A stretch of 64,000 nucleotides of DNA, taken from Actinoalloteichus fjordicus (GTDB lineage Bacteria > Actinomycetota > Actinomycetes > Mycobacteriales > Pseudonocardiaceae). Every line of letters starts with the position of its first letter. Position 1 is the stretch's first letter. A program made the translations under genes and the position numbers. The notes under the pieces are model-generated. The model ran no database searches. It had not been told where the DNA came from and saw only the letters and a program-made list of their open reading frames with translations. Location of the stretch: contig NZ_CP016076.1 of NCBI RefSeq assembly GCF_001941625.1, forward strand, positions 1,116,001-1,180,000, written 5' to 3'. Below, piece by piece: positions 1,791-36,821 of this stretch.

Positions 1791-2603
1791 TCACTCGGCA
1801 GAGCCGACCAGGTGACGTCTCGCCTCATACAGCAGCACGCCCGCAGCGACGGCCAGGTTGAGTGACTCAGCGGTGCCCACCATCGGGATTCGCACACAGT
1901 GATCACCGCGGTCGATGAGGTCTTCGGGGAGCCCGTCGCCCTCGCTGCCGAGCAGGATGGCGATCGGCGTGCGGTACTCGGTGGACCAGTGCTCGTCATC
2001 GGCCCGGCCGGAGGTGGTGACGACCTGCACGCCGTGCTCGCGGACCCAGTCGAAGAAGCCGTCGGCAGTCCGGACGTGTGCAACGTCGACCGCGAACAGC
2101 GATCCCATGCTCGCCTTCACCGCAGCGGGTGCGAACGGGTCGGTGCAGTCGCCGACCAGGATCACTCCTGCGCCGCCGACCGCGTCGACGGTGCGGATGA
2201 TCGTCCCCAGGTTGCCGGGGTTCCCCACCTCGTGCAGGACGGCGAACACCGCACCCGGGGTGACTTCGAGTGTCTTCAGCTCGCTGGTCCGGCCCCGCAC
2301 GATCGCGGCGAGCCCTGGCGGGCTGTCTCGGTCGGACAGCCGTTGGAACAGCTCCTTGCTGAGTCGTGCCACTCGCACGCCCCGCGCCTCCTGCTCGGCC
2401 ACCATGGCACTCGCCGCCGACTCGCGGAGCAGGTCCGGGGCGACCAACAGGGTCTCGATCGGCCAGCCCGCTGCGACCGCCCGCCAGACAGGTTGGATGC
2501 CCTCGACGACGAAGGCGCCTTCACGCTGGCGACGCCGTCGGTCACCCAGCGCCCGTACCCGCTTGACCAGCTGATTCGACGCGCTGCTGATGATTTCGGT
2601 CAT
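1791..2603 (-). CDS. SpoU/TrmH-family RNA 2'-O-methyltransferase (putative self-resistance)
   Basis: This 270-residue protein of the SPOUT class transfers a methyl group from SAM to a ribose 2'-OH of RNA. An N-terminal substrate-binding domain is followed by the knotted catalytic domain. SPOUT motif 1 is NPGNLGTIIRT, motif 2 is AILLGSEGDGL and motif 3 is IPMVGTAESLNLAVAAGVLLYE. These are the motifs of the TrmH, thiostrepton-resistance and AviRb enzymes. The start is taken at ATG 2603, with AAGGA 11 bases upstream; ATG 2624 is an alternative. It is divergent from a second SpoU gene 237 bp away, at the edge of the cluster. A housekeeping rRNA methylase is also possible; the target nucleotide cannot be read from sequence. 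Confidence 0.85.
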   Translation of the reverse strand: MTEIISSASNQLVKRVRALGDRRRRQREGAFVVEGIQPVWRAVAAGWPIETLLVAPDLLRESAASAMVAEQEARGVRVARLSKELFQRLSDRDSPPGLAAIVRGRTSELKTLEVTPGAVFAVLHEVGNPGNLGTIIRTVDAVGGAGVILVGDCTDPFAPAAVKASMGSLFAVDVAHVRTADGFFDWVREHGVQVVTTSGRADDEHWSTEYRTPIAILLGSEGDGLPEDLIDRGDHCVRIPMVGTAESLNLAVAAGVLLYEARRHLVGSAE

Positions 2604-2840
2604 CTCCGGTCCGTTCCTTGCCATGATCCCTGTCTCGACACCGCACGGTATCTGTACGCGAGCTTCGTGCTGCTGGCGACCACACGGAAGGCGGGTGCCC
2701 GGCGCTCCGGAACCTGAGCGGGACGAACTGTCCGTGACCAGGCCTTAGCGTTCCCGGTGTCGGTTGGGAACTGCGCATTGGCGTTGCGGACGGTGCGTTA
2801 CTATAAGTTCCGACACTGGTGGCGCGGCGATAAGGTAAGG
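2604..2840. promoter_or_regulatory. divergent promoter region between the two SpoU genes
   Basis: This 237-bp gap separates oppositely transcribed SpoU methyltransferase genes. A possible rightward -10 (TACTAT, 2799-2804) lies 15-16 bases after a weak TTGGCG-like -35 near 2778. The match is poor. The local sequence around 2790-2830 is A/T-richer than its surroundings, which fits a promoter. Start sites cannot be fixed from sequence alone. Confidence 0.35.
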
Positions 2841-3650
2841 GTGAAATTGCAACACATCGGAGCGCAGCATCCGCGGATTCGCCAACTCATATCGATTCAA
2901 AAGAATTCGGCACCGAATCCGCACAAACTCTTCGTCGCGGAAGGCCTGTGGGCGCATAACCTGCTGCTCAACAATGACGTGACGGTCGATGCGTTCTTCT
3001 GGTGCCCGGAAGCTGCTTACGGTGATGAGGCCCGCAAGCGTGCCGACGAGCTGATGAGTCGCGCCAATTCGGCGTACCAGATTTCCGCGAAGACGCTTGA
3101 GCGGATCTCCGAGCGGGACCGGCCGGACGGATTGATATCGCTTGCGGCCCTCCCGCGATATACGCCTGCGGACGTGCAGCTGCCGCCGAATGCGCTGGTG
3201 ATCATCGCCGATGGCATGGAGATCCCCGGCAACCTCGGTACCCTCATCCGCACCTTCGACGCCTGTCGTGGTGATTGCCTGATACTGACGAACCGTCGCA
3301 CTCGACTCACGCATCCGAAAGTGTTCCGGGCCAGCCAGGGGATGCTGCTGACGACGCCTATCATCGAGTTCGACCAGATCGAGGACGCCGTCGACTGGCT
3401 GCGCGAATGGGACGTCGAGGTGTACCTCAGCGATACCAGAGACTCGCGCAACTATCGGCAGTATGATTATGGGAAGGGTCGCACGGCGTTTGTTCTCGGC
3501 GCCGAGCGGTACGGGATACCGAAGGCGTGGAGCCAGCCCGACTTCAACCGGGTGTTTGTGCCGATGCTCGGCAATGCCGACTCGCTTAACGTCTCGGTCT
3601 CGGCGGCCGTCCTGTTGTATGAGGCAAGGGCGCAGAAAGAAGGCTGGTGA
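2841..3650 (+). CDS. SpoU-family RNA 2'-O-methyltransferase, second copy (putative self-resistance)
   Basis: This protein of about 269 residues has the same layout as the divergent neighbour. The N-terminal substrate domain reads LISIQKNSAPNPHKLFVAEG. The knotted SPOUT domain carries motif 1 (IPGNLGTLIRTFDA), motif 2 (AFVLGAERYGIP) and motif 3 (VPMLGNADSLNVSVSAAVLLYE). GTG 2841 is chosen because AAGG repeats lie just upstream; the frame stays open to 2757. Enzymes of this type protect thiostrepton and avilamycin producers by methylating 23S rRNA (known for the families, inferred here). It is not a recent duplicate of the 1791-2603 gene, since the two proteins share mainly the SPOUT motifs. 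Codon use is a little less GC-rich than in the NRPS genes. Confidence 0.88.
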   Translation: MKLQHIGAQHPRIRQLISIQKNSAPNPHKLFVAEGLWAHNLLLNNDVTVDAFFWCPEAAYGDEARKRADELMSRANSAYQISAKTLERISERDRPDGLISLAALPRYTPADVQLPPNALVIIADGMEIPGNLGTLIRTFDACRGDCLILTNRRTRLTHPKVFRASQGMLLTTPIIEFDQIEDAVDWLREWDVEVYLSDTRDSRNYRQYDYGKGRTAFVLGAERYGIPKAWSQPDFNRVFVPMLGNADSLNVSVSAAVLLYEARAQKEGW

Positions 3651-3903
3651 CTTTCGGTTGCCCTGTGTGATCAACTGCCACGGTCGGACATGACGGTCGA
3701 TCGTGGTGGATCACCTGCTGCGGACTCAATCATTGATCCCGAACCGCACCCCATCCCCTCCCGACACGCTATGGTTTGACGGTGTCGAGAGTCGGGAGTG
3801 GCTGGCCGAATGCGGGGTCGCTCCGGGCTACGGCTACATTCGTGACTGATGCCCCGCCCGGTGAGCGCCGGCGGCGGACGCGACGCGCAGGAGGTTGTCG
3901 ACG

Positions 3904-4158
3904 ATGGCAGTGTACGAAGGAGCAGTTGCCCAGGTGTGGGCCGACGTTATCGGGGTGGATGTCTCCGAGGTCGATACGGTCACCAGCTTCTTCGATGTCG
4001 GGGGAAATTCATTCCTGCTGATCAAGTTGGTCGACGAACTAAATTCGGTCCTGGGCATCGAGACGGACATCGTCGCATTGTTGGAATACTCGACGATCGA
4101 AGAGTTCGTCGCCCACTGCAACTCTCGGCTTGACCGTGCGGAGTCAGAGCCAGCTTGA
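3904..4158 (+). CDS. free-standing peptidyl/acyl carrier protein
   Basis: An 84-residue single-domain carrier protein that holds an acyl or aminoacyl group on a phosphopantetheine arm. The attachment motif is DVGGNSFLLIKL, with the modified Ser in GGNSF. The GGxS form is more PCP-like, while the Asn and the following Phe are unusual. ATG 3904 is preceded by AGGAGG at 3889-3894 with ideal spacing; an upstream in-frame TTG at 3895 abuts that site and is unlikely. The gene's 3' end overlaps the 3' end of the convergent ABC exporter gene by 15 bp. It could be the partner of one of the two stand-alone adenylation proteins and carry the residue modified by the halogenase. Confidence 0.9.
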   Translation: MAVYEGAVAQVWADVIGVDVSEVDTVTSFFDVGGNSFLLIKLVDELNSVLGIETDIVALLEYSTIEEFVAHCNSRLDRAESEPA

Positions 4159-5910
4159 CCATAACCGGGCGTAGGCGCCGCCCTGGTCGAGAAGATCCTG
4201 ATGGGAACCGACCTCGACGAGTCGTCCGTGCTCCATCACGGCGATCCGATCCGCGTCGTAAGCCGTGTGCAGACGGTGCGCGATCGCGATGACCGTGCGA
4301 CCCGCAAGCACGGTCGCAAGCGCCCGCTCGAGACTTCGGGCCGAGCCCGGACTCAGCTGAGAGGTCGCTTCGTCGAGAATGACCACCGGCGGATCTGCCA
4401 ACAACAGTCGGGCCAGGGCAAGCTGTTGCGCCTGGGCATCCGTGAGCGGCTCCCCGCTGGTGCCGACCGCAGTGTCCAACTTCTCCGGGAGGTCGGCGAC
4501 CCAGCCGCTCGCGCCAACCGTCTCCAGCGCCGTCCACAGCGCGACGTCGTCGGGCTGTGGACGCACGTCCCGACCGGCCCGCGAGGTGGACATCTCGAGG
4601 TTGTCCCGGAGCGAGCCACCGAAGATGTACTGGTCCTGGGTCACCAGCATCACGTGCTGGCGCAGTTCGTGCAGCGGAATCTCGTGCAACGGCACGCCAG
4701 AGATGTGCACGGCGCCTGCACGTGGATGGTAGATCCCGGACAGCAGCCGGGCGAGCGTCGACTTGCCGCTTCCGGTCTGACCCACGATGGCGAGCCGCTC
4801 GCCGGGCCGCACCGTGAGGTCGATCCCGTGCAGCACGTCCGGCCCGTCTTCATAGCCGAACTGAACGGCGCTCGTGGACAGGTCGGCCGAAGAAATGGTG
4901 CGGTCCTGGCTCGTCGGTGCCGGCTTCGTCGTGGTGTCTGCGACGCCGAGCAGACGCGCCAGCGACACCTTTCCCTGCTGGAGCGTGGGCACCCAGTCAA
5001 GCAAGACCTCGAGGGGAACCATCGCCTGCAGGATGTACAGCGTCGCAGCGGTGACCTGGCCCAGGTCGACCCAGCCTTGGCCGTAGGCGTACCCGCCGAG
5101 CAGCAGGGCCAAGGTCAGCGGCGCGACGAAGAGGAACTCCTCGACCGGGTAGAGGACCGTCCGCAACCGCAGCGTCCTGCCGACGGCGCCGTACCAGGAT
5201 CGGGTGTCCTGACCGGTGCGGCGCATCCGGTCGGCCTCCAGGCCGAATGCCTCGACGGTGCTCGCACCCGCAACGGTGGCTGACAGGCCTTCTGTGATGC
5301 GTGCCGAGGCTTCGGCTTCGCGGAGGTACGCGCCGTAACTGCGGGACAGGTACCACCGGTTGACGAGTACGAGAGGCGGCGCGATGACCAGCAGCGCGAA
5401 CGCGAGCTGCCACGACACCAGCAGGATGGCACCGACACTGAGCACGATCCACACCACTGCTTCGGTGACCTGGGGTACCGCGAGCTGCATGGTTCGTCGC
5501 AACATGTCGACGTCCCGCGAAGCGCGCGTCACCAGATCGCCGTCGTCGGATCTCTCGACGTCGGCCAGGGGAAGCGCCAGCGCATCGTCGACGAACTTCT
5601 CCCGAATCTCGGCCAGGACCGTCGCGGCCAGTCTGCCCGCCGAACGGAAGGCGACACGGATCAGGAAGACCTGGATCAGAGTGAATCCGAGTAGGGCGCA
5701 CGCGAGGACCGTCACGTGGCCGACCGTCGTGCCGTCGCGCACGGACTGAACCATGTCGCCCAGCAGTCTGGGCCCGACCAGACCGCTCGCTGCGGCCAAC
5801 CCGTACTGCAGCAGAACCACGGCCAGATCCCGCTTGTGGCGACGCGCGAGCGTCCCCACGAAGCGGCGGATCGTCTTCTCGCCTGCTACGGGAAGCGTGC
5901 GCGCGCTCAT
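4144..5910 (-). CDS. ABC exporter half-transporter with intact Walker A and degenerate signature
   Basis: A 588-residue exporter-type half-transporter: an N-terminal six-helix membrane domain (about residues 25-310) and a C-terminal nucleotide-binding domain. Walker A is GQTGSGKST (377-385) and Walker B is VVILDEAT with the catalytic Glu near 514. The switch His is in AIAHRL. The signature expected as LSGGQ is instead LTDAQ (about 489-493), so this subunit cannot complete a partner's ATP site. It overlaps the upstream half-transporter gene by four bases (ATGA), indicating coupled translation of a heterodimer. Position inside the cluster suggests export of the product. The GTP/ATP-binding half most likely powers transport together with the FSGGE signature of its partner. 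Confidence 0.92.
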   Translation of the reverse strand: MSARTLPVAGEKTIRRFVGTLARRHKRDLAVVLLQYGLAAASGLVGPRLLGDMVQSVRDGTTVGHVTVLACALLGFTLIQVFLIRVAFRSAGRLAATVLAEIREKFVDDALALPLADVERSDDGDLVTRASRDVDMLRRTMQLAVPQVTEAVVWIVLSVGAILLVSWQLAFALLVIAPPLVLVNRWYLSRSYGAYLREAEASARITEGLSATVAGASTVEAFGLEADRMRRTGQDTRSWYGAVGRTLRLRTVLYPVEEFLFVAPLTLALLLGGYAYGQGWVDLGQVTAATLYILQAMVPLEVLLDWVPTLQQGKVSLARLLGVADTTTKPAPTSQDRTISSADLSTSAVQFGYEDGPDVLHGIDLTVRPGERLAIVGQTGSGKSTLARLLSGIYHPRAGAVHISGVPLHEIPLHELRQHVMLVTQDQYIFGGSLRDNLEMSTSRAGRDVRPQPDDVALWTALETVGASGWVADLPEKLDTAVGTSGEPLTDAQAQQLALARLLLADPPVVILDEATSQLSPGSARSLERALATVLAGRTVIAIAHRLHTAYDADRIAVMEHGRLVEVGSHQDLLDQGGAYARLWSSWL

Positions 5911-7640
5911 CGGCCTGCCTCTAGTGCGTCGTTGCGCCTGACCAGATCCCGATATTCGGCATGGGTAGCCAGTAGTTCCTTGTGCGACCCCGTGGCCGTC
6001 ACTCGACCGTCGACGACATAGGCGACGAGTCCGGCTTGCTGTAGCAACAACGGACTCACCGTGAACACGACCATGCTTCGGCTGTCCGGGAGAGCCTCGT
6101 GGTGCCTGGCCAGATTGGTTGCGATGGTGTGCTCCGTGTAGGCGTCGACGGCGTTGGTCGGTTCGACGAGCAAGGTGACGTCGGCGTCGGCCAGAATCGC
6201 GCGAGCCAGTCGCAGACGTTGTAGCTCGCCACCCGAGAACGTCCTGCCCCGGCCACGCATCTGCGTGTCGGAGCCGTTCGGCAGCGAATCGATGATGTCC
6301 GCTGCGCAGGAGACCTCGAGTGCGGCCGCGAGCTCTTCCGGAGTGGTGGTCTCCGACGGTGCGATCTCATGCTGGATGGTCCCGCCGAAGAACCGGTCGC
6401 TGTTGCGCGCCAGCAGCACCCGGGAACGCACGACAGCCAGCGGCAACGAAGCCAGCGGCTCGCCGTCCAACGTGACATCGCCGGAGTCGCCGAAGCGAGC
6501 CAGTCGTCGGGCGAGCGGGTCCGCTGTGGACGAGTCGGCGCACACGACTGCCAGCAACGTCGACGGCGGGACCTCCAGACCCGAGGTCCGATCGACCAGG
6601 TGTGCCGCGCCCTTGTTCTCGGCCGCCACCGTCGATCGCGCTCGGTCCGGTGCCTCGGTGTTCAGCAACGCCGTGACACGGCTGGCGGAGACCAACGCCC
6701 TGGTCACCTGTTTCGCGCCTTCCATGATGTCGTTGAGGGGGAGGGTGAGAAAGACTGCGAATGCGTAGAACGAAACCATCTGGCCGACCGTCACCTGCTG
6801 ATCGAGCGCGAAGCGAGCCGCGGTGTAGGTGGCGATCGCGGCGATCAGGCCCGGCATGAGGACGCGCGCCCCGTCGAGATTCGCTTCGGCCTGCGCCACC
6901 TTGGTGTCCGCGACCCGCAACTGTGCGGAATCGGTGTGGAAAGCCGTCGAGAACTGCTTCTCCCCGCCGACCCCGCGCAGCACCCGCAGGCCTGCGGCGA
7001 TGTCGACTGCTCGTGCCGACAACCGGCCTTGCTGAGACCGGTACTCGTCCTGATTCCGGTGCAGGGGACGCAAGAGAAGTCCGCTGAGCACGAGTAGCGC
7101 GGGAACCATGACCAGGACCATCAGCCCGAGCGGCACCGAGATCGTGAGCATGAAGATGGTGACCACGATGACGGCCACGATTGAGCCGAGGAACCGGCCT
7201 GCGTGTAGCAGCCCGTTGCCGATAGTGGTCACATCCGACGTCACCGTCGCGGTCAGGTTGCCGACATCCTGCCCTCGCGAGAGCGAGCCGCCGAGCTTGG
7301 TGACGTGCCGCGTGACCGCCTGCACGGTCAAGCCTGCGGACACGGTACGGCTGATGACGGTCTGTCGATAGAACGCGATTCCTGCGGCCGCTCTCACCAC
7401 GCCGAGTAGTAGGATGACTCCGGACCAGTAGATCAGGGCGCCGCTGTCGCGGCCGGTGATGCCGAGGTCCAAGGCCTGGCCGAGGGCGACCGGAATGAAT
7501 GCCTGGCTGGCATTCCACACTGCTGACGTCACCATTCCCCAGGCCGTGCTGGCCTTCTGACGCGAGACGAGCCAGAGGAGATATCTGGCTGCCGAGCGAT
7601 GGTCGATTGCTTGCGCACCGAGCTCGGGGATGCGTCGCAT
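5907..7640 (-). CDS. ABC exporter half-transporter with degenerate Walker A, Walker B and switch His
   Basis: A 577-residue partner of the downstream exporter gene, with an N-terminal membrane domain and a C-terminal nucleotide-binding domain. The signature FSGGELQRLRLARA is intact. Walker A, however, is replaced by VVCADSSTADPLA (no GxxGxGKS), Walker B reads LLVEPT with its Asp lost, and the switch-His segment reads VVFTVSP. It probably does not hydrolyse ATP itself but supplies the signature loop to the other subunit. The start is ATG 7640, with a GGAG about 12 bases upstream. A longer frame upstream has no clear ribosome site and runs through the intergenic repeat region. First gene of a leftward two-gene operon, divergent from the NRPS operon. 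Confidence 0.9.
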   Translation of the reverse strand: MRRIPELGAQAIDHRSAARYLLWLVSRQKASTAWGMVTSAVWNASQAFIPVALGQALDLGITGRDSGALIYWSGVILLLGVVRAAAGIAFYRQTVISRTVSAGLTVQAVTRHVTKLGGSLSRGQDVGNLTATVTSDVTTIGNGLLHAGRFLGSIVAVIVVTIFMLTISVPLGLMVLVMVPALLVLSGLLLRPLHRNQDEYRSQQGRLSARAVDIAAGLRVLRGVGGEKQFSTAFHTDSAQLRVADTKVAQAEANLDGARVLMPGLIAAIATYTAARFALDQQVTVGQMVSFYAFAVFLTLPLNDIMEGAKQVTRALVSASRVTALLNTEAPDRARSTVAAENKGAAHLVDRTSGLEVPPSTLLAVVCADSSTADPLARRLARFGDSGDVTLDGEPLASLPLAVVRSRVLLARNSDRFFGGTIQHEIAPSETTTPEELAAALEVSCAADIIDSLPNGSDTQMRGRGRTFSGGELQRLRLARAILADADVTLLVEPTNAVDAYTEHTIATNLARHHEALPDSRSMVVFTVSPLLLQQAGLVAYVVDGRVTATGSHKELLATHAEYRDLVRRNDALEAGR

Positions 7641-7819
7641 GGCTGGAGGGGACTCCTCTATCGGCGTGTTGATCGTGCGGCAGCCTAGCGTCCGGCTACT
7701 TCGGTGGATAGGCCTGGCGGATGTCGGCGCGTGCGACGGGCCGCCCCGCTGTGCGCTCATCTCCCCGTCGGTCCGCCTGGTGTCGCTGACATCGTGGTGC
7801 CTGCGGGCTCCCATCCGTT

Positions 7820-7905
7820 TCACGCCGAGACGGCCTTGGCTGTTCGACCGACAGTAGATGAATCACGCCGAGACGGCCTTGGCTGTTCGACCGACAGCAG
7901 ATGAA
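7820..7905. repeat. tandem duplication of a 43-bp unit upstream of the NRPS operon
   Basis: Two head-to-tail copies, 7820-7862 and 7863-7905, differ at one base (AGTAGATG versus AGCAGATG). Each begins TCACGCCGAGACGGCC and ends ACAG(T/C)AGATGAA. They sit in the roughly 350-bp gap between the divergent ABC exporter operon and the main NRPS operon. The gap also contains an A/T-rich piece (about 7905-7925) that could include promoter elements. A regulatory role such as paired operators is possible but unproven. Confidence 0.85.
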
Positions 7906-7989: not shown

Positions 7990-9756
7990 GTGAGTGGACT
8001 GTCCTTACTCGAACAGATCAGTGACATCGCTGCAAGTGACCCGCGTCGGCCTGCGGTGCGTGCAGGCGAAGGACTGCTCGACTACGGCGAAGTGATGTCG
8101 ACGGTGACCGATCTGCGCGATCAGCTGCGCGCGCAGGGAGTCGGGCCGGAAGACGTGGTGGCAACCGTGTTGCCGCGGGGCGGTAATCCGATCATCGCCA
8201 TGCTGGCCATCTGGATGGCGGGTGCGGCGTATCTGCCGGTCGACGTGAAATGGCCCGAGCGGCGGCGTGAGCTCGTCCTCGGCGAGGTGGCGACCTTCGC
8301 TCTGGAGATGTCCGACGGCGAGGCGCATGGTGGCATGCCGGGTGAATCCGGGTTCCGCATCCGACGCCTGCGCGAAGGTCACACCCGGGTCGACGGTGCG
8401 AGCGCGACCGAGCGGAATCTGGCCTATGTCCTCTGCACGTCCGGCTCCACCGGTACCCCGCTGGCCGTCGGTGTCGAGTTCGGCGCGTTGGACAACTACG
8501 CACGATACCTCCTCGACCTGGTGAGGCAGCCTGCTCTGCACTCCGAGGGCGACCTGCGGGTACTGCTGTCGGCCGATCTGGCTTTCGACGCGTCGCTCCG
8601 GCCCGTGCTGCTGCTCGCGGCGGGCGCCGAGCTCATCGTCGCGCCGGACCTGACGGAGGGCTCGTGGCAGGACCACATCGACTGCATCGCCGAGCACAAG
8701 GTCACGGTCCTCAGCGGCGTGCCGTCCTGGTACTCCGGGCTGTTGGGTGCGGGTTACGTACCCGGTGACTCCGCAGTGCAACTGGCCTTCATCGGTGGCG
8801 AGGCGGTGCCGAACGGCGTCGTGCGCCAACTGGCCGCGAGTCAGTCCGTCGTGGTGCAGTACGGACCTACGGAGACGACGGTCGCGGCGACGGGCGGTCG
8901 GCTCGTCGACGACGAGTTCCTGGAAGCACCGATCGGCGTACCCGTGCCGGGGGCGCAGATCCAGCTGTACCGCAACGTCGAGTTCGACCCGGCGATCGAC
9001 GGCGAGCCTGCCTACCTGTATGTGGGCGGCGCGGGCGTCGCGCGCGGATACCTGAGCAACCCGCGGCTGACCGCAGAGCGATTCACCCCGAACCCCTCCG
9101 GCCCGCCGGGGTCGCGACTGTTCCGGACCGGCGATCTCGCGAAGGTGTCGCCGCAGGGCGCCTACAGTTTCCTGGGACGGTCGGACGATCAGGTCAAGAT
9201 CAGCGGCAGGCGGATCGAACTCTCCGAGATCTCGACGGTCCTCAACCGGCATCCCGCTGTCGCCCAGTCGGTCGCCTTCGTCGACCGGGACTCCCCGAAC
9301 CCCTTGCTCGTCGCCTGCTACGTCGGTGATCGTGGCGCGGCCGAATCGGGAGAGGAGGCCGGTGTTCGGGAATACCTGGCCCGCGAGCTCCCGAGCTACG
9401 AGGTGCCCGCCGTGGTTCGGCGCGTGGAGTCCATGCCGATGACCGAACGCGGGAAGGTCGATGTCCCGGCGCTCGCGCGGCTGGTGAAGCCTGCGGAGAC
9501 CGACGCACGGGACGAGGAGCCCGATGATCCCGCCATGACCGACGTCGAGAAGAGGGTGATCGCGATCGTGCGCTCGACGTTGGATCTTCGGTGCTCGCTC
9601 GACGACGAGTTCTTCACGCTGGGTCTCAGCTCGCTGGACTCGCTGAACATCCTGGCCCAGATTCGCGAGGAACTCGGCGTCCGAGTGCGATTACGGGACT
9701 TCTTCCAGGCGCGCACCACTCGGAACCTCTGCAAGCTCATCGGGGACGTCAGTTGA
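7990..9756 (+). CDS. NRPS loading-type module: adenylation-PCP
   Basis: A 588-residue protein: an adenylation domain (about 1-500) and a carrier domain (about 515-588). Core motifs are A3 TSGSTGTPLAV (the usual PKG is replaced), A4 FDASLRP, A5 QYGPTETT, A7 FRTGDLA, A8 near GRSDDQVKISGRRIEL and A10 ERGKVDV. The carrier motif is LGLSSLDSL, with the modified Ser near 548. Reading the binding pocket by eye gives about D-A-R-S-F-G-Q-V-A-K. Arg at the third position is rare and might face an acidic or otherwise unusual substrate, so no substrate is assigned. There is no condensation domain, so it probably starts the chain and feeds the PKS two genes downstream. First gene of a long, tightly spaced rightward operon. 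Confidence 0.93.
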   Translation: MSGLSLLEQISDIAASDPRRPAVRAGEGLLDYGEVMSTVTDLRDQLRAQGVGPEDVVATVLPRGGNPIIAMLAIWMAGAAYLPVDVKWPERRRELVLGEVATFALEMSDGEAHGGMPGESGFRIRRLREGHTRVDGASATERNLAYVLCTSGSTGTPLAVGVEFGALDNYARYLLDLVRQPALHSEGDLRVLLSADLAFDASLRPVLLLAAGAELIVAPDLTEGSWQDHIDCIAEHKVTVLSGVPSWYSGLLGAGYVPGDSAVQLAFIGGEAVPNGVVRQLAASQSVVVQYGPTETTVAATGGRLVDDEFLEAPIGVPVPGAQIQLYRNVEFDPAIDGEPAYLYVGGAGVARGYLSNPRLTAERFTPNPSGPPGSRLFRTGDLAKVSPQGAYSFLGRSDDQVKISGRRIELSEISTVLNRHPAVAQSVAFVDRDSPNPLLVACYVGDRGAAESGEEAGVREYLARELPSYEVPAVVRRVESMPMTERGKVDVPALARLVKPAETDARDEEPDDPAMTDVEKRVIAIVRSTLDLRCSLDDEFFTLGLSSLDSLNILAQIREELGVRVRLRDFFQARTTRNLCKLIGDVS

Positions 9757-24046: not shown

Positions 24047-24145
24047 TATTCTATCCGGGCGGACGCATTCGACGAGAATTCCGAGAGCTGGGGGGCTCGG
24101 CTGCGTCGGCGTAGTGATTTGCCAGCATTCGACGTAAGGAGAGTT

Positions 24146-26336: not shown

Positions 26337-26351
26337 CGAGTAGGTTACTCG
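26337..26351. promoter_or_regulatory. small inverted repeat in a divergent promoter region
   Basis: CGAGTA-GGT-TACTCG is a perfect 6-bp inverted repeat with a 3-bp centre. It lies in the 233-bp gap between the MbtH gene (leftward) and a methyltransferase gene (rightward). Its size and place suit an operator for a small dimeric regulator. No regulator gene is present inside the cluster, and the match could be chance. Confidence 0.35.
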
Positions 26352-26519
26352 CGCGCCAACCGAATTAACCAGGGCGCTAGACTGTCCGCAGGCAACGACT
26401 CCGGCCCGCACTTCTTATCCTCCCACCAACCACAACCGGCCGTGGCGGCTGGATGCACGTGAATCTTACTCCCGCCCCCGACCCGCATTCCGGCTGCGAT
26501 GCGACCTGGAGAGACTCAA

Positions 26520-28509: not shown

Positions 28510-28510
28510 G

Positions 28511-29575: not shown

Positions 29576-29611
29576 ACGACTTCGGTCCCACCGGTGTGGC
29601 GAAGGGCGGAG

Positions 29612-31324
29612 ATGACAACACATGACCAGGTGGGGGCGCATTCCCCGCAGATCGAGGGCGCGGTCCCATTGATCGATCGAACGACCGACACACTCCCCAT
29701 CGGCCCGCTGCAAGAGGGCCTGTGGGTGTTCTGGCAACTGAACCCGGCCAGCGCGGCGTACAACCTCCCCGAGACCCTCCACGTCGAGGGCGAGTTCGAT
29801 CTGGACGCCATCCGGTTCGCATTCGACGAGACGGTGCGGCGGCACGAGGCACTGCGCACGACATTCCATGAGACCGAGTCCGGTGTCGTCCAGGTCGTGT
29901 CAAGCGACCCGGGTCCGCTGCCCGTCACGGTCACCGACCTTCGCGACGTGCCGGCGGCCGAGCACGCGGACCGGCTCGCCGCCACTCTCTATGACGAGGC
30001 GAATGCGCCGTTCGACCTGGCTGCGGACCTGCCGATCAGGCTCGCCGTCATCCGCGTCGCCGAGGAGCGCACGTCGCTCCTCATCACCACCCACCACATC
30101 GCGTGTGATGGACCGTCGTTATCGCGTGTGCTCGAGGATTTCGAGGCGTTCCACCAGGCGGCACGACGCGGGACTCTTCCGGATCTCCCGCCCGCTCCCC
30201 CCGGCTACACCGAGTTGGTCCGGCAGCAACTCGCCGCGCTCGCGGGGCAGGGACTCCGCGATGAGCTCGACTACTGGCGAGACCGGCTCGCAGGCGCACG
30301 TGGCAGCGTGCTGCCGGGTGACGGCGGCAGCAGGTCGACGGAGGGCACCCATCGAACCTCTTCCGTGTCGACCGTCCTCCAGCCCGAACTCGCGGCCGAG
30401 GTGCTCGACTACGCCCGCCGATCGCGGGCCACCCCGTTCACCGTTCTGCTCTGCACGATGCAGATCATGATCGCCCACGCGTCGAAGGACCGTGAGGTGG
30501 TGCTGGGCACCGCGACGGAAGGGCGGTCGCGACGGTTCGTGGACACGGTCGGGATGCTCGTGAACACCCTCGTGATCAAGTCGACGATCGACACGTCTGC
30601 CTCCTTCGCGGCCGTGCTCGAAGCCGTGTCCCTCGACGTGATGGACGCGCTCGACTATCAGGATCTGCCTTACAGCCGCGCGATCGCCGAGCTCGACGGC
30701 TCCGGCCGAGGATCGGGCGACGACCTGATCAAAACCATGTTCACCGCAGGTGCGAAGGGCGGGTCCGCAGCCCGTAGCGAACGGGAGTCCGGAGTTCCGG
30801 CATACCGGGTCGAGGGCCCGTTCGACGTCATCACGTGGACCTATATCGAGGGTTCCGTGGTCGTCCTCGACTGGGAGTTCGCGCTGCGTTCGTACTCGCG
30901 CGAGACCGCAGCGGGTTACCGGGACGCCTACCAGGAGATCCTGGCCGCGTTGGTGCGCGATCCCGAGGCGCCGATCGATTCTCTCGGGCTGACCGACGTG
31001 CTTACCCGATTCGTCCCTGACGCGTCCCCGACTACGGTCGCCGGCTCGGCTGAGTCCGTGGCGTCCGACGCGGGAACGGCCGACGGGGCCGACGACACGA
31101 CCCTGTCACCGGTCGAGACGGCCGTCGCGGCTATCTGGGCCGAGTTCCTGGAGGTCCCGGTCGAGTCGCCGTTCGACGACTTCTTCCAGCTCGGCGGCCA
31201 TTCGATGGTGGCGAGCCGAGTTGTGGCGGTCGTCCGCCGGAAGGTTGCGCCCGTGACCATGCGGAAGCTGTTCGATCACCCGCGACTGCGCGACTTCTGC
31301 GCCCTGCTGGACACAGGCGGGTGA
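29612..31324 (+). CDS. NRPS condensation-PCP protein lacking adenylation domain
   Basis: A 570-residue protein: condensation domain (about 25-455) with intact HHIACDG (His162), an acidic Asp/Ala-rich linker (about 465-495) and a carrier (about 500-565; Ser531 in LGGHSMV). There is no adenylation domain, so the carrier must be charged in trans, presumably by one of the stand-alone A proteins. ATG 29612 follows GAAGGGCGGAG. Its C domain resembles the altered free C protein at 9753-11186 in length and wording (PLQEGLWVFWQLNP against PLQEQIWRFWRQNP), suggesting duplication. It begins a rightward group of three NRPS genes, divergent from the oxidase/PLP operon by 36 bp. Confidence 0.93.
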   Translation: MTTHDQVGAHSPQIEGAVPLIDRTTDTLPIGPLQEGLWVFWQLNPASAAYNLPETLHVEGEFDLDAIRFAFDETVRRHEALRTTFHETESGVVQVVSSDPGPLPVTVTDLRDVPAAEHADRLAATLYDEANAPFDLAADLPIRLAVIRVAEERTSLLITTHHIACDGPSLSRVLEDFEAFHQAARRGTLPDLPPAPPGYTELVRQQLAALAGQGLRDELDYWRDRLAGARGSVLPGDGGSRSTEGTHRTSSVSTVLQPELAAEVLDYARRSRATPFTVLLCTMQIMIAHASKDREVVLGTATEGRSRRFVDTVGMLVNTLVIKSTIDTSASFAAVLEAVSLDVMDALDYQDLPYSRAIAELDGSGRGSGDDLIKTMFTAGAKGGSAARSERESGVPAYRVEGPFDVITWTYIEGSVVVLDWEFALRSYSRETAAGYRDAYQEILAALVRDPEAPIDSLGLTDVLTRFVPDASPTTVAGSAESVASDAGTADGADDTTLSPVETAVAAIWAEFLEVPVESPFDDFFQLGGHSMVASRVVAVVRRKVAPVTMRKLFDHPRLRDFCALLDTGG

Positions 31325-31448: not shown

Positions 31449-34268
31449 ATGTCGGACTCGGTGATGCCCCAGCGACGGGACCAGGGGACCGAAGTTGTGG
31501 CGACTGAGGCCGAGCCTCGATTAGCGCCCGTCTCGGTCGGTCAGGAAGCACTCTGGTTCATCGACCAGGTGACGCCAGGCACGTCTCAATACCTGATGAC
31601 CTTTCCGTTCCGGATGACCGGTGAACTCGACGTGCCCGCGCTCGAGAACGCGCTCGACCGGCTCGTCGCCCGGCACGGAGCTCTCCGGACGACGTTCGTC
31701 GAACGCGACGACCAGGTGTGTCAGGTCGTCCATGACCACGTGCGCGTGCCATTGTTCGTCGAGGACGTGGCGGGCGGCGAATCCGGGGTGCGGCAACGGC
31801 TGTTACGTGAGGCCGACCGGGGCTTCGACCTGACGACCGGCCCGCTGTTCCGGGCGACTCTGCTCAGGTGCGGCGACCGGGAACACGTGCTGGTGCTGGC
31901 TACGCACCACATCATCTTCGACGGCGGCTCTCTCGACATCGTCGTGGACGAACTCGCCGAGTTCTACGCCGACGAGCTGGGTGCGGCCTCGTCGAAGGGG
32001 CAGGCAGGCCAGTACGCCCGGTTCGCGATCGATGAGCGGGCATGGCTCGACGGGGAGGAGAGTCGCGAGGAGCTGGACTTCTGGCGCGCGACTCTCTCCG
32101 GCGCCCCGCAGCTCACGCTGCCGACCGATCGCCCCCGGTCCTCGGCTTCGTCGGTCACCGGTGATCTCGCGCAGTTCACGGTCGGCGAGCAGGAGTTCGA
32201 GGGCGTTCGCTCGCTGCTCGCGCAGGAGCGGCTCACGCCCTTCATGTTCGCCCATGCGCTGCATCATCTGGCGGTCGCGCATCTGACCGGCCTGCGGGAC
32301 ATCGTCGTCGGCAGCCCGGTCTCCAACCGACCCGACGGATTCCGCGACGCCGTCGGCTACTTCGTGAACATGATGGCGTTACGGGTGGACTCGTCCGGCG
32401 AGCGCACCTTTCGGGATCTGCTGCGTCAGGTGCGGGGTGCCCTGCTGGACGCCTACGAGAACCAGAGATACCCGTACGCCCGTCTGGTCTCCGCCCTCGC
32501 GACCACGGAACGCGGGTTGCGTCCTGACCTGTTCGACACCGTTCTCCTCGTGGAGTACGAGGCGTCGGGAGAGGACCGATGGGGAGGTCTCGGCGTGACG
32601 CGTCTTGAGACCGACAACAGCACGACCAAGTTCGAACTCGGCGTGTCGGTCATCTGGGGCGACCGCGGCTTCGAGACCGACATCGCGTTCCGTACGGCAC
32701 TCTTCGACCGAGCGACGATCGCCTCCTTCGCCGAGCACTACCGGTCGCTCGCGCTGCGGGCCATCGCCGAACCGGATGTCGAGCTGGCGAGCCTGCTGTC
32801 GGCCGACGCCGTTCCGTTCGACCGGGAGGAACCGGTCCGACGTCTTGTCGGTGCCGGGGCGTCACCCGCGTCGCGACGTGACGCGGCGGTCTCGGGTGGG
32901 TCGTCGTCGAAGTCGCCCGCTGCGCGCCGGGCGCCGAGGAACTCCCGGGAGGAGACCTTCGCCCGGCTCGTCGCCGAGGTGCTCGGCCGGGAGTCGGTCG
33001 GGATCGACGACGACTTCTTCGAACTCGGCGGGCACTCGCTGCTGATCCCGCGTCTGGTGTCACGGGTGCGGGCGGTGTTGGGCGTGGACGTCGCGATCCG
33101 GTGGGTCTTCGAGTCGCCGACGGTGGCCGGACTCGTCGATCGCCTGGAGAACCCGGTGCCCGACTCGCCGACGCGTTCCAACGGCCATGCTTCGAGCGTC
33201 CGGACAGACAGCCGGATTCAGGTCCGGCGTCTCGTCCCCGCGTCGCCGCCCGATGAGGTGGTCTCGGGCGGGTCGTCGTCGAAGCTGTCGGCTGCGGGCC
33301 GGGCGCCGAGGAACTCCCGGGAGGAGATCCTCGCCCAGCTCTTCGCCGAGGTGCTCGACCAGGAGCTGGTCGGGATCGACGACGACTTCTTCGACCTCGG
33401 CGGGCACTCGCTGCTGATCCCGCGTCTGGTGTCACGGGTGCGGGCGGTGCTGGGGGTGGACGTCGCGATCCCGTGGCTGCTCGAGTCGCCGACGGTGGCC
33501 GGACTCGTCGATCGCCTCGGCAGCCCGGTGCCCGACGCGCTGGCGCCGCTGCTCCCACTGCGCGCGGGCGGCGACCTCGACCCGGTCTTCTTCCTGCCGC
33601 CGATCGGCGGTCTCAGCTGGGCCTATGCACGATTCCTGCCCTTCATCCCGAAGGGTCGCCCGGTCTACGGCCTGCAGGCGACGCGTCTGATCTCCGGTGC
33701 GGACCGGCCGGGAACGCTGCGGCAGGTGGCCGAGACCTATCTCGATCTCATCACCGGAGTCAGCCCAGGCAGTCCGTTGTCGCTGGTCGGATGGAGCCTC
33801 GGTGGGGTCGTCGCGCAGGAGATCGCGGTGCTGGCGCAGGAGTCCGGACGTCCGGTGCGCGATCTAGTCCTGCTCGACGCCGTTCCAAGCGTTCCTCGGG
33901 TGATTCCTGCCGACGAGGCCGTCTCCTCGGAGGCCATGGAGGCGATCACGGACTCGATCCGCGGATCCGTCGGCAGCGAAGCAGACGAGTTGACCGAGTC
34001 CCTGTTCGGCGAGCTGCTGGACACTGCCACGCACTGCTTTCGCCTGTTGGCAGCTCATCGATCCCGACCGTTCGACGGCCACACCGTCAGTTTCGAGACC
34101 GACGAGACCGGGCCGCTACGCAGCCGGATCGGGATCACGTGGACCGACCTCTCGTCCGGTGGCGTCGACACGCATCGGCTGACGTGCCTGCACAGCGAGG
34201 TCATGGACATGCCGATCGTTCGCCGGACCGGCCCCGCCGTCGCAGGCATCCTGGCGCGGCCTCGGTAA
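31449..34268 (+). CDS. terminal NRPS protein: condensation-PCP-PCP-thioesterase
   Basis: A 939-residue protein. The condensation domain (about 20-455) has HHIIFDG (His154). Two nearly identical carriers follow, Ser530 and Ser654, both in LGGHSLLIPRL. A type I thioesterase (about 690-935) has Ser783 in GWSLGG and a late His in LHSEV. No adenylation domain is present. The double carrier ahead of the thioesterase may speed final condensation, hold two copies of the last residue, or allow thioesterase-driven dimerisation or cyclisation. ATG 31449 has AAGGTG just upstream. The thioesterase makes this the chain-ending protein. The C domain's early segment APVSVGQEALWFIDQV is typical of LCL/DCL-type domains. 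Confidence 0.95.
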   Translation: MSDSVMPQRRDQGTEVVATEAEPRLAPVSVGQEALWFIDQVTPGTSQYLMTFPFRMTGELDVPALENALDRLVARHGALRTTFVERDDQVCQVVHDHVRVPLFVEDVAGGESGVRQRLLREADRGFDLTTGPLFRATLLRCGDREHVLVLATHHIIFDGGSLDIVVDELAEFYADELGAASSKGQAGQYARFAIDERAWLDGEESREELDFWRATLSGAPQLTLPTDRPRSSASSVTGDLAQFTVGEQEFEGVRSLLAQERLTPFMFAHALHHLAVAHLTGLRDIVVGSPVSNRPDGFRDAVGYFVNMMALRVDSSGERTFRDLLRQVRGALLDAYENQRYPYARLVSALATTERGLRPDLFDTVLLVEYEASGEDRWGGLGVTRLETDNSTTKFELGVSVIWGDRGFETDIAFRTALFDRATIASFAEHYRSLALRAIAEPDVELASLLSADAVPFDREEPVRRLVGAGASPASRRDAAVSGGSSSKSPAARRAPRNSREETFARLVAEVLGRESVGIDDDFFELGGHSLLIPRLVSRVRAVLGVDVAIRWVFESPTVAGLVDRLENPVPDSPTRSNGHASSVRTDSRIQVRRLVPASPPDEVVSGGSSSKLSAAGRAPRNSREEILAQLFAEVLDQELVGIDDDFFDLGGHSLLIPRLVSRVRAVLGVDVAIPWLLESPTVAGLVDRLGSPVPDALAPLLPLRAGGDLDPVFFLPPIGGLSWAYARFLPFIPKGRPVYGLQATRLISGADRPGTLRQVAETYLDLITGVSPGSPLSLVGWSLGGVVAQEIAVLAQESGRPVRDLVLLDAVPSVPRVIPADEAVSSEAMEAITDSIRGSVGSEADELTESLFGELLDTATHCFRLLAAHRSRPFDGHTVSFETDETGPLRSRIGITWTDLSSGGVDTHRLTCLHSEVMDMPIVRRTGPAVAGILARPR
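32843..33540 (+). repeat. 372-bp tandem duplication encoding the double carrier
   Basis: Two in-frame copies, about 32843-33200 and 33223-33540, are offset by 372 bp measured between the carrier serine codons (33036 and 33408). Long stretches are identical at DNA level, for example from the GACGACGACTTCTTC region through the first half of the carrier. Even the preceding linker (SGGSSSK and RAPRNSREE) is repeated. This indicates recent duplication or ongoing gene conversion rather than two old domains. Confidence 0.9.
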
Positions 34269-34328: not shown

Positions 34329-35825
34329 GTGAGAACGCTGCATTCCTGGTTCACTGCCACTGCTGACCGGTTACCTGATGAGATCGCGCTGGTGGTGGCC
34401 GGGCAGCAATGGACCTACGTGGAGCTCGATCGGGTCGCGCGACGCGTCGCCTCGATCGTCGCGGATACCGTGCCTCGGCGCCCGGCCCGGGTCGGGCTGC
34501 TGGCCGCGCGCAGCGTGGGGGCCTATGCGGGCTACCTCGGCGTGGTGCGCGGCGGCAACGCGGTGGTACCGATGCATGTCGATTATCCTGCCGAGAGCAA
34601 CCGCCAGGTCGTGGAGGTTGCCGAGCTCGACGCCCTGATCGTCGATGACGGCCGCGACCTCGAGTTCGCGAGCGGCTTCGACCTGCCGATCATCGAGGTC
34701 GGCAGCGAGGATGCCAGACGGTTGTCCGAGGAGCGCGTGGCGGACGCCGTCGAGGACGCGGAGGACCCGGAAGACATCGCGTACATCCTGTTCACCTCGG
34801 GGTCCACCGGCGTGCCGAAGGGGGTGCCGATCCGGCATCGCAATCTCGATGCCTTCGTCCGGTACCAGCTGGACCGGTACGGCATCGGTCCCGGCTGCCG
34901 TATGTCCCAGACGTTCGGGCTGACTTTCGACCCGTCGGTGTTCGTCATGGCCGTCGCGTGGGGGAGTGGCGCCACGCTGGTGGCACCGTCGCGCGCCGAG
35001 TTGGTCGATCCGGTCGGGTTCGTCAACGATCACGCCGTGACGCACTGGTACTCGGTGCCCTCGATCGTCTCGTGGGTGCACGACGCCGGGTCGCTGGAGC
35101 CGGGCAGCCTGCCCACGCTGCGCCGCAGCCTGTTCGCGGGGGAGCAACTGACCCTGGAGCAGGCGCGCGTGTGGTCGGACGCCGCGCCCAACAGCACGAT
35201 CGAGAACCTGTACGGGCCGACCGAGAGCACTATCACGGTCACCACGTACCAACTGCCTGCCGATCGAGCCGCGTGGCCGCAGACCGAGAATGCAACGGTG
35301 CCGATCGGCCCGGTGTACCCGCATCTCGAGTACCGGATCGACCCGCTGACCGGTGAGCTCCAGGTCCGAGGGCCGCAGCGGTTCGACGGGTATCTCGACC
35401 CGGCGGACAACGCAGGCCGCTTCTGGGATCCCGATGCGGCCTGCGATGCCGGCTTGGTCGGCAGTGCCGCGTGGTACCGCACCGGTGATCGCGTGGCCGA
35501 CATCGACGGTGATCTCGTTCACCTGGGTCGCCTCGACGACCAGGTCAAGATCATGGGCAGGCGCCTCGAACTCGGTGACGTAGAAGCCGCGTTGCGGCAG
35601 TGGGCAGGTGTCGGTGACGTCGTCGTGGTCGCAGGCCCCGGCCCGACCGAAGACCTTCAGCTCACTGCGGTATACACCGGCGTGGCCGTCGATGCAGGCG
35701 AGTTGCGCCGCCGACTGTTCCCGAACGTGCCGAGCCACATGATTCCCGCGCGGTTCGTGCACGTGGAAGCGCTGCCGCTCAATGCCAACGGCAAGATCGA
35801 CCGCAAAGCCTGCCGGGCGCTGTGA
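34329..35825 (+). CDS. stand-alone adenylation protein, unassigned substrate
   Basis: A 498-residue adenylation protein without a carrier. Motifs are TSGSTGVPKGV, FDPSVFVM, NLYGPTEST, YRTGDRV, GRLDDQVKIMGRRLELGDVE and the A10 lysine in NANGKIDR. The pocket read by eye is D-P-F-Y-L-A-L-I-T-K, which I do not recognise. Pro at the second position is unusual, and the largely hydrophobic lining would not suit a charged guanidino side chain. GTG 34329 has GAGAGGG upstream. It is the last of three rightward NRPS genes. It probably loads one or both carriers of the C-PCP and C-PCP-PCP-TE proteins, since neither has its own A domain. Convergent with the halogenase gene, 42 bp apart. Confidence 0.92.
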   Translation: MRTLHSWFTATADRLPDEIALVVAGQQWTYVELDRVARRVASIVADTVPRRPARVGLLAARSVGAYAGYLGVVRGGNAVVPMHVDYPAESNRQVVEVAELDALIVDDGRDLEFASGFDLPIIEVGSEDARRLSEERVADAVEDAEDPEDIAYILFTSGSTGVPKGVPIRHRNLDAFVRYQLDRYGIGPGCRMSQTFGLTFDPSVFVMAVAWGSGATLVAPSRAELVDPVGFVNDHAVTHWYSVPSIVSWVHDAGSLEPGSLPTLRRSLFAGEQLTLEQARVWSDAAPNSTIENLYGPTESTITVTTYQLPADRAAWPQTENATVPIGPVYPHLEYRIDPLTGELQVRGPQRFDGYLDPADNAGRFWDPDAACDAGLVGSAAWYRTGDRVADIDGDLVHLGRLDDQVKIMGRRLELGDVEAALRQWAGVGDVVVVAGPGPTEDLQLTAVYTGVAVDAGELRRRLFPNVPSHMIPARFVHVEALPLNANGKIDRKACRAL

Positions 35826-35867
35826 CTCCGGCCGACGGACCAGCACCACAGCACCCGGCCTCGCGGA

Positions 35868-36821
35868 CTACTGGATACGGAATGGGTAACCCCGCTGGTT
35901 CTCCGTCGCGATTCGGTTGATGCCGTAGTCGTCGACGCCGGAGACGAGCACGGCGCCGTATTTCGAGAGATCGATCTCGCCGCCGTACTCGACCACGTCA
36001 TCGGTGTTCGGGTAGACCTTGACCTTGGTCGGCACGTAGCGGGCCGCGAATCCCATGCGGTAGTCCCGCACACTACCCGTGTGTGGCAGGGACGCGTGCA
36101 TGAGAGTGGACCAGAAGATGACCGACTCCCCACGCTTCATGACCAGAGGGAACGCTTGAGACTCGTCCGGCTTCCAGTTGGGATCCTTCTGCAGCTGCCG
36201 GTAGTCGTAGCCGAAGAAGCCCCGCTTGATTCCTTCTTTCTCCGTGCTATTGAGCGTTTCGGGTTGGAAGTCCATGGGCTTTGACTCATCGTAGTTCATG
36301 TGGTGGTGGGTCCCCGGCATCAGCTGGAGGCAGCCGTTCTCCAGCGTCGAGTCGGTGAATGCCGTCCACACCGTGATGGTGCCACCGAACGCAGGCTCGC
36401 CGTCCTCGGACGGCCAGGCGATCTGCGGTTTCTTGCTGGCGTTCGCGAAGGTGGCTGCCTGGTGCCAGTCCGTTCCCTCGTCGCCTGCGTACTTGGGGAA
36501 GAACTCAGTACGCCAACACAGGACATCGGGGCCGAGGATCGACGCCACCCGGTCGACGATCCTGGGGTTCATGATGTGCTCCGAGAGCAGATCAAGGTCT
36601 AAATGGCGGTCATAATTCGCAATGTTGGTCGCCGAACCCCGGGCTTCGGCGTCGTAGATAGCATGGGATCGATCAACCAGTTGACGTCTAATCGACCGCC
36701 ACCGCTCCTCCATCTCTTCCGGCTCGTAGATCCGGACTGGGCCGATGTAGCCCTCCCGATCGAACTGTTCGCGTTGCTCTTGAGACAAAGCGAAGTCGCC
36801 ACGTGCGTCGTTGTTCGTCAT
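35868..36821 (-). CDS. SyrB2-like non-heme Fe(II)/2-oxoglutarate halogenase
   Basis: A 317-residue enzyme that, from its family, chlorinates an unactivated C-H on a carrier-bound amino acid. It follows the syringomycin halogenase SyrB2 almost end to end in length and wording, including [32 protein letters not shown] and FWSTLMHAS. The deciding motif is HQA at 120-122. Hydroxylases have HxD/E here, and the Ala leaves the iron site open for chloride. The second iron His is 242 in LMHAS, and the 2-oxoglutarate Arg lies in YRMGFA. ATG 36821 is used; the ribosome site is weak. A likely substrate is Thr loaded by the Thr-coded A protein. It is the last gene at the right edge of the cluster, alone on its strand. 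Confidence 0.93.

What the first reader, a model, noticed from the sequence alone, without database searches (positions are those of the whole stretch)
1791..36821. Split NRPS/PKS cluster for an unrecognised chlorinated, guanidine-rich peptide
Seen: four adenylation, five condensation, six peptidyl-carrier, one KS-AT-ACP-aminotransferase and one thioesterase domain, spread over eight proteins, plus an amidinotransferase, a SyrB2-like halogenase, two His-box oxidases, a PLP enzyme, a mycofactocin-type SDR, two methyltransferases and two SpoU methylases. I know of no characterised cluster with this set. Inference: a ribosome-targeting peptide with chlorothreonine, a guanidino unit and a beta-amino acid.
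Basis: partly seen in the sequence, partly recalled or inferred. Interest (0 to 1): 0.92.

Follow-up and report, generated by a model that had tools for sequence, protein, structure and literature searches.

The report
Guanidine peptide gene cluster family
This stretch of an actinomycete genome is an intact set of about twenty genes that probably builds a small, chlorinated, guanidine-rich peptide for which no characterised relative was found here, and four sister gene sets with a shared core occur in other actinomycetes.

Summary
Profile and PDB searches confirm four A, five C, six PCP (one free-standing), one KS-AT-ACP-aminotransferase-C protein, one thioesterase, an AGAT-type amidinotransferase, a SyrB2/CytC3-type chlorinating enzyme, two His-box oxidases, a PLP enzyme, a mycofactocin-type SDR, two methyltransferases and two SpoU methylases. 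An MbtH protein and an ABC exporter pair are added.

Four sister clusters were found: Actinophytocola gossypii, Catellatospora bangladeshensis and two unnamed Pseudonocardiaceae genomes. Eleven elements recur in all five. Halogenase, one methyltransferase, a separate C-PCP protein and a doubled PCP were seen only here and in A. gossypii. C1 is a decayed paralogue of C-PCP.

Chlorothreonine is well supported (threonine-type A domain plus halogenase); guanidino unit and beta-amino acid by domain content. Enduracididine is only suggested: the PLP enzyme misses both curated cut-offs and control aminotransferases score nearly as high. The ribosome target rests on two cluster-specific SpoU clades, not seen in two sister clusters. 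MIBiG could not be searched; ten paper searches (listings, some capped) showed no characterised match. Verdict: an uncharacterised cluster family built from known enzyme types.

The parts
1791..2624 (-). SpoU1, SpoU/TrmH-family RNA 2'-O-methyltransferase (probable self-resistance)
   Evidence: PF00588 6.7e-38; cluster-only clade 98/98; homologues beside or within sister clusters in A. gossypii and G531
2757..3650 (+). SpoU2, second SpoU-family methyltransferase (start uncertain)
   Evidence: PF00588 8.7e-29; cluster-only clade 100/100
3895..4158 (+). free-standing peptidyl carrier protein (start 3895 or 3904)
   Evidence: PF00550 2.8e-16; in 5 of 5 clusters
4144..5910 (-). ABC exporter half 1
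   Evidence: PF00664/PF00005; 5 of 5 clusters
5907..7823 (-). ABC exporter half 2
   Evidence: PF00664/PF00005; 5 of 5 clusters
7990..9756 (+). A1-PCP, code DARSFGQVAK
   Evidence: PF00501, PF00550; code
9747..11186 (+). C1, discrete condensation domain with HQxxxDG (second motif His lost) and no PCP; start uncertain
   Evidence: PF00668 1.9e-59; motif; 46% paralogue of the C-PCP protein
11179..16992 (+). KS-AT-ACP-AMT-C hybrid protein (beta-amino acid former)
   Evidence: Pfam; active-site motifs
17037..18164 (+). AGAT-type amidinotransferase (AMDT)
   Evidence: AGAT 1jdx 409.5 bits, HsvA, SxtG; FHC and HID motifs
18161..21313 (+). A2-PCP-C, code DAESFGDISK (start uncertain)
   Evidence: Pfam; code identical in 7 of 7 modules of this kind examined
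21332..22372 (+). GntB-like membrane di-iron hydroxylase
   Evidence: PF00487 2.8e-34; NF041365 222 bits, cut-off 380; His boxes
22454..24046 (+). A3, free-standing adenylation domain, threonine-type code DFWNVGMVHK
   Evidence: PF00501 8.8e-82; code
24119..24955 (+). mycofactocin-type short-chain dehydrogenase
   Evidence: TIGR03971 347.2 bits, cut-off 300
24948..25997 (-). MT1, class I methyltransferase (start uncertain)
   Evidence: PF05175 7.5e-8, NF001790 3.1e-9; of the 13 other genomes compared seen only in A. gossypii
26077..26286 (-). MbtH-like protein (ends approximate)
   Evidence: PF03621 2.6e-20 for 26080-26355
26499..27359 (+). MT2, SAM methyltransferase
   Evidence: PF08241 2e-18
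27385..28509 (-). GntC/VioD-like PLP enzyme (start uncertain, 28509 or 28539)
   Evidence: PF00155 6.1e-40; NF041364 257 bits, cut-off 415
28511..29464 (-). FADS2, second His-box oxidase, found with AMDT and/or A2
   Evidence: PF00487 2.5e-28; start from homologues
29594..31324 (+). C-PCP without its own A domain
   Evidence: PF00668, PF00550; as a second copy beside C1 only here and in A. gossypii
31449..34268 (+). C-PCP-PCP-TE, tandem carriers and thioesterase
   Evidence: PF00668, PF00550 x2, PF00975; alignment
34329..35825 (+). A4, free-standing adenylation domain, code DPFYLALITK
   Evidence: PF00501 1.1e-56; code identical in 4 of 4
35868..36821 (-). SyrB2/CytC3-type chlorinating enzyme
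   Evidence: TIGR01762 444.6 bits, cut-off 226.3; CytC3 513 and SyrB2 436 bits; HQA motif

Best explanation
The region is a complete hybrid NRPS/PKS gene cluster that makes a short, strongly basic pseudopeptide, probably exported by the ABC pair and tolerated by the producer through 2'-O-methylation of its own rRNA. Proposed order (inferred): A1 loads an amino acid; the KS-AT-ACP adds a C2 unit and its aminotransferase turns the beta-keto group into a beta-amine, giving a beta-amino acid, with a vicinal diamine if the A1 residue keeps its alpha-amine. The PKS C domain joins this to the A2 residue, a basic and probably guanidino amino acid prepared by the FADS2 oxidase and perhaps the amidinotransferase. 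The GntB-like hydroxylase and the PLP enzyme prepare a hydroxylated or cyclised arginine-type residue. Threonine is activated in trans by A3 and chlorinated at C4 by the SyrB2-type enzyme while on a carrier. A4 loads a last residue in trans and the TE releases the product. C1 is probably a worn-out copy whose work is done by its intact paralogue, the C-PCP protein, so four rather than five condensations may count. Shown: domains, active-site motifs, the conserved core in five clusters, the C1/C-PCP paralogy and cluster-specific SpoU clades. Inferred: substrates, order, product, ribosome target.
For: Domain and motif calls. Five clusters share eleven elements. A2 code identical in 7 of 7 modules and A4 code in 4 of 4. 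A threonine-type A3 code is present in both clusters with a halogenase (A. gossypii has two A3 copies, one with this code), while Catellatospora (DFFSIAMVHK) has no halogenase match in its genome. AMDT directly precedes A2-PCP-C in 5 of 5 clusters, overlapping it by 4 bases in the window if A2 starts at 18161. FADS2 and AMDT lie in one stretch of at most about 20 kb in 10 of the 13 family genomes (own included) with a strong FADS2 hit. SpoU1 and SpoU2 form two clades apart from the 15 other SpoU copies found in three genomes. C1 and C-PCP are 46% identical paralogues; G531 and G684 have a single C-PCP of this type with an intact HH motif.
Against: The PLP enzyme is not a clear GntC or VioD: below both cut-offs; two control relatives score 236 and 223 bits against 257; 1895 plasmid records hold relatives, the best 47% identical; GntC residues N52, S26 and H250 are changed (my reading of the alignment). 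Because C1 seems dead, the module order is uncertain. SpoU genes were not found in the stretches read of the Catellatospora and G684 clusters. G533 and G013 have FADS2 and A2 without AMDT in the stretch read, and seven other clusters have FADS2 with AMDT but without this A2, so which enzyme feeds A2 is open. G531 has the threonine code without a halogenase in the cluster (weak genome matches only). A1, A2 and A4 codes have no substrate known to me, and no paper of the library holds them.
Confidence: 0.6

Rival explanations
1. Cryptic halogenation: threonine is chlorinated on the carrier, but chlorine is lost later, for example by SDR oxidation and ring closure, so the product has no chlorine.
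For: The SDR gene lies next to A3 in all three clusters that have it: window, A. gossypii, Catellatospora; cryptic halogenation is reported for largimycins (PMC9396626, abstract seen in the search listing).
Against: The SDR is also present in Catellatospora, which has no halogenase match, so its role does not depend on chlorine.
Confidence: 0.2
2. The cluster makes a guanidine peptide that does not act on the ribosome; the SpoU genes are neighbours with another task.
For: In the window the SpoU genes sit at the cluster edge, and they were not seen in the stretches read of two of five clusters; SpoU1 misses the TsnR/NshR cut-off (73 against 425 bits).
Against: Both SpoU genes recur together within or beside the cluster in three genera (window, A. 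gossypii, G531), as cluster-only clades.
Confidence: 0.3
3. It is the cluster of a known antibiotic whose genes are described in a subscription paper or in MIBiG, neither of which could be searched here.
For: The library holds only open-licence papers; no cluster database was available; three of the ten listings were capped (20 of 143, 25 of 29 and 15 of 29 shown).
Against: Ten paper searches showed no characterised match, judged from the listings.
Confidence: 0.2

Closest known systems
Guanitoxin GntB/GntC (L-enduracididine formation)
   Same: A His-box hydroxylase with GntB as best curated hit (222 bits) and a PLP enzyme with GntC as best curated hit (257 bits), in one cluster
   Different: Both below the curated cut-offs (380, 415); active-site N52 and H250 changed (reading); an extra FADS2 oxidase without an NCBIfam hit; NRPS/PKS context
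Viomycin/capreomycin clusters (cluster content recalled; trans-acting A domain of capreomycin from the abstract of PMC12400406, listing)
   Same: PLP enzyme similar to VioD (236 bits), A domains acting in trans, basic peptide
   Different: No other 2-oxoglutarate oxygenase than the halogenase among the genes profiled; here a PKS-aminotransferase, an AGAT-type amidinotransferase and a halogenase
Syringomycin SyrB1/SyrB2 and CytC3 (SyrB1 recalled)
   Same: Threonine-type A domain with a non-haem iron chlorinating enzyme
   Different: A3 is a lone A domain whose carrier is elsewhere; no lipid-starter domain recognised
Mycosubtilin/iturin and microcystin KS-AT-ACP-AMT modules (recalled)
   Same: Aminotransferase fused after an ACP to form a beta-amino acid
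   Different: Followed by a lone C domain and accompanied by an A1-PCP protein as the likely starter
AviRb and TsnR rRNA methyltransferases (PDB 1x7o and 3gyq; names recalled)
   Same: SpoU fold with an L30e-like substrate domain; 129 and 57 bits for SpoU1
   Different: Closest solved relatives are TrmH-family enzymes without a resistance label; target nucleotide unknown

Membership tests
SyrB2-type chlorinating enzymes (TIGR01762) | score above the curated cut-off 226.3 | tested here: met
   444.6 bits
SyrB2-type chlorinating enzymes (TIGR01762) | HxA/G in place of HxD/E at the iron (recalled) | tested here: met
   HQA at residue 171 of the long reading, aligned with HQA of SyrB2 and CytC3
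SyrB2-type chlorinating enzymes (TIGR01762) | chlorinates a carrier-bound amino acid | not testable with these tools
   needs an in vitro assay
GntC enduracididine cyclase (NF041364) | score above the curated cut-off 415 | tested here: not met
   257 bits; controls from two other actinomycete loci 236 and 223
GntC enduracididine cyclase (NF041364) | catalytic Lys219, Glu9, Ser25, Asn52 (PMC10367076, passages) | tested here: inconclusive
   Lys, Glu and Ser25 kept; Asn52 is Tyr and Ser26 is Asp (hand reading)
Capreomycidine synthase VioD (TIGR03947) | score above the curated cut-off 390.9 | tested here: not met
   236 bits
GntB arginine gamma-hydroxylase (NF041365) | score above the curated cut-off 380 | tested here: not met
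   222 bits
GntB arginine gamma-hydroxylase (NF041365) | three His boxes of the FADS fold | tested here: met
   HMATH, HLGEHH, HLVHH
AGAT-type amidinotransferases | full-length similarity with catalytic His and Cys (recalled) | tested here: met
   AGAT 409.5 bits over residues 24-375; HID and FHC
Mycofactocin-coupled SDR (TIGR03971) | score above the cut-off 300 | tested here: met
   347.2 bits
Mycofactocin-coupled SDR (TIGR03971) | mycofactocin genes in the genome | not tested
   no search made
TsnR/NshR resistance methyltransferase (NF000477) | score above the cut-off 425 | tested here: not met
   SpoU1 73.4 bits; SpoU2 gave no NF000477 hit at 1e-20

The most novel reading that the evidence does not exclude
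A new class of ribosome-directed antibiotics: a pseudopeptide with a PKS-made beta-amino acid, two differently made guanidino residues (one from amidinotransferase plus FADS2, one from the GntB-like and PLP enzymes) and 4-chlorothreonine, with self-protection by two rRNA 2'-O-methyl marks; FADS2 and the PLP enzyme would then form a guanidino amino acid not described before.
Probability: 0.3. Interest if true: 0.8.

Novelty: new variant of a known kind. Interest (0 to 1): 0.5.

Why it matters
If right, the five clusters define an unworked family of guanidine-rich peptides with a built-in comparison: two carry the halogenase and three do not, three carry the paired rRNA methylases, and one A-domain pocket is unchanged down to 53% identity. 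Two of the strains are named (A. gossypii, C. bangladeshensis), so product, chlorination and resistance can be tested by gene deletion.

Tried and rejected
Rejected: reading the PLP enzyme as a proven GntC. The model's best hit looked convincing, but a control with relatives from Streptomyces sp. Mg1 (an annotated aminotransferase beside an ornithine cyclodeaminase gene) and Nonomuraea gerenzanensis (no annotation held) gave nearly the same scores. Rejected: my first reading of the 2745-3674 minus-strand frame as a gene; the gene there is SpoU2 on the plus strand. Rejected: MT1 and FADS2 starts as given by the longest ORF; homologues start later. Rejected: that the halogenase is part of the core; it is in 2 of 5 clusters. 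Uninformative: searching papers for the A-domain codes (no paper) and for A. gossypii (no paper). Not used: structure prediction and fold search, since no claim turned on a fold.

Dropped before counting: one genome of the 14 with a match (G455, E 1.7e-4, 34% over about 100 residues) was left out of the FADS2 count; five of six genomes with a match were weak (best E 5e-8 to 3.4e-4) and only the own genome was strong. A cluster element is called absent only from the stretches fetched; A. gossypii and C. bangladeshensis are draft assemblies with the cluster split over contigs (the Catellatospora GntB-like gene is on another contig). The halogenase alone was searched in whole genomes of the sisters: no match in C. 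bangladeshensis, weak matches in G531 (E 3.8e-7) and G684 (E 2.2e-12, 45% over about 100 residues).
Full report
What is there. The window is part of a 7.12 Mb single-contig genome. The count of six PCPs is right once the free-standing carrier at 3895-4158 is included. Active-site motifs are present in KS, AT, ACP, AMT and TE, in the amidinotransferase and in the halogenase. The exception is C1, which reads HQxxxDG. The PKS C domain reads PHAVVDG: it keeps the second His. The AT motif HPYH is not canonical, and I do not assign its extender unit.

Sister clusters. A scan of named genomes with the amidinotransferase gave 45 loci of up to 10 kb on each side. By tblastn two carry the same cluster: A. 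gossypii (amidinotransferase 90% identical) and Catellatospora bangladeshensis (85%), the latter in another order, Micromonosporales. A family-wide search with FADS2 (390 genomes) led to G531 and G684. Across the five clusters these recur in 5 of 5: free-standing PCP, two ABC halves, C1, KS-AT, AMT, amidinotransferase, A2-PCP-C, GntB-like, GntC-like and FADS2. An A1-position A domain and an MbtH gene are also found in all five, but the G684 A domain is of another type (36% identical; code DVWHLSLVDK, recalled as serine). A4 and the C-PCP-TE protein are in 4 of 5 (Catellatospora has an A-PCP-C and an A-PCP protein instead). SDR and MT2 are in 3 of 5, both SpoU genes in 3 of 5. Halogenase, MT1, the separate C-PCP protein and the doubled PCP before the TE are in 2 of 5 (window and A. 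gossypii).

A worn-out module. C1 and C-PCP of the window are paralogues (46% identical; next best 30%). G531 and G684 have a single protein of this type, beside the KS, with its own PCP and an intact HH motif, and four C domains in all against five in the window and A. gossypii. C1 reads HQ in the window, A. gossypii and Catellatospora; that it lacks a PCP was checked by profile for the window only. I read this as duplication followed by decay of C1, its role taken by C-PCP where that is present.

Substrates. Pocket codes were read by motif position. A3 is DFWNVGMVHK, which I recall as the threonine code. A. gossypii has one copy with the same code and one with DVWNVAMVHK. G531 has the same code without a halogenase in the cluster. 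Catellatospora has DFFSIAMVHK and no halogenase match in its genome. A2 is DAESFGDISK in 7 of 7 modules of its kind, including G533 and G013, which are only 53% identical in the A domain. Glu and Asp in the pocket fit a basic residue (inference). A4 is DPFYLALITK in 4 of 4. A1 is DARSFGQVAK in three clusters and DARSFGQIAK in G531. I know no substrate for the A1, A2 and A4 codes, and no paper in the library holds them.

Guanidino chemistry. The amidinotransferase matches AGAT, HsvA and SxtG. It is not rare: 12 of 60 relatives, own included, have a match. FADS2 is: 13 of 390 family genomes, own included, have a strong match (one weak match dropped), and in an even sample of 396 genomes of the phylum only the own genome does. 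The amidinotransferase is in the stretch read in 10 of those 13; in A. gossypii it is on another contig of the same cluster, and in G533 and G013 it was not seen (none in G013, a genome 74% complete). In seven of the ten it is the direct neighbour. So FADS2 probably works on the amidinotransferase product or on a similar guanidino acid. The GntB-like enzyme and the PLP enzyme suggest enduracididine by analogy with guanitoxin, but this fails the family test. The scores are 222 (cut-off 380) and 257 (cut-off 415), and two control relatives score 236 and 223. Residues named in PMC10367076 (12 passages seen) are partly changed, by my reading of the alignment.

Resistance and target. The three genomes searched hold 8, 7 and 4 SpoU genes. 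In a tree of 21 sequences the six cluster copies form two clades of their own (98/98 and 100/100), while 14 of the 15 others fall into five groups shared between genomes. The joint grouping of the two cluster clades is weak (62/42), and two SpoU2 rows have an unusual letter make-up, so I claim only the two separate clades. This supports cluster-borne methyltransferases and, indirectly, a ribosomal target. By the curated cut-off SpoU1 is no TsnR, and SpoU2 gave no TsnR hit. In the PDB, SpoU1 is closer to 1x7o (129 bits; AviRb, recalled) than to 3gyq (57; TsnR, recalled), but closest to other TrmH-family enzymes.

Literature. Ten searches were run. Only PMC10367076 was opened, for passages; the other papers were seen in listings, three of which were capped. 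None of the listings described a cluster with this set. Subscription papers and MIBiG were not available, so absence from print is not shown.

Verdict. The finding is real, and apart from C1 no sign of decay was seen; it is one of a family of five clusters for which I found no characterised member. Its enzymes are of known kinds in a combination that I could not match. The chlorothreonine, guanidine and beta-amino acid inferences are sound at the level of domain content; enduracididine and the ribosome target remain hypotheses.

Noticed in passing
L077, L079, L114-L118 (genomes G029, G021, G758, G764, G493, G653, G523): A second group of Pseudonocardiaceae NRPS clusters has the amidinotransferase and FADS2 as direct neighbours; in four of them read for this (G029, G758, G764, G493) the adjoining A-PCP protein has the code DAWFLGHVVK; the core PKS-aminotransferase was not seen in the stretches read.
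   Followed up: partly
G533 (L119, L127) and G013 (L120): The A2-PCP-C module with the invariant code and FADS2 occurs without amidinotransferase in the stretch read; G533 has two halogenase relatives (37-40%) nearby, and G013 has a 60% identical halogenase on another contig.
   Followed up: partly
L026, Pseudoalteromonas luteoviolacea, 929-2959: An amidinotransferase (50%) and a FADS2 relative (39%) are direct neighbours in a proteobacterium, upstream of MbtH and NRPS matches.
   Followed up: no
L075, A. gossypii contig C25: The contig ends on both sides in an A3-type A domain, so this strain has two copies, with codes DFWNVGMVHK and DVWNVAMVHK.
   Followed up: partly
L085 2329-8874 (about 9.7 to 3.1 kb left of window position 1): A run of plus-strand genes with APH-type phosphotransferase, glycosyltransferase, histidine phosphatase and HAD hydrolase domains lies left of the cluster; it may be a separate sugar pathway.
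   Followed up: no
window 37505-39981: Two CNNM/CBS-domain membrane proteins in tandem follow the halogenase and probably mark the right edge of the cluster.
   Followed up: no
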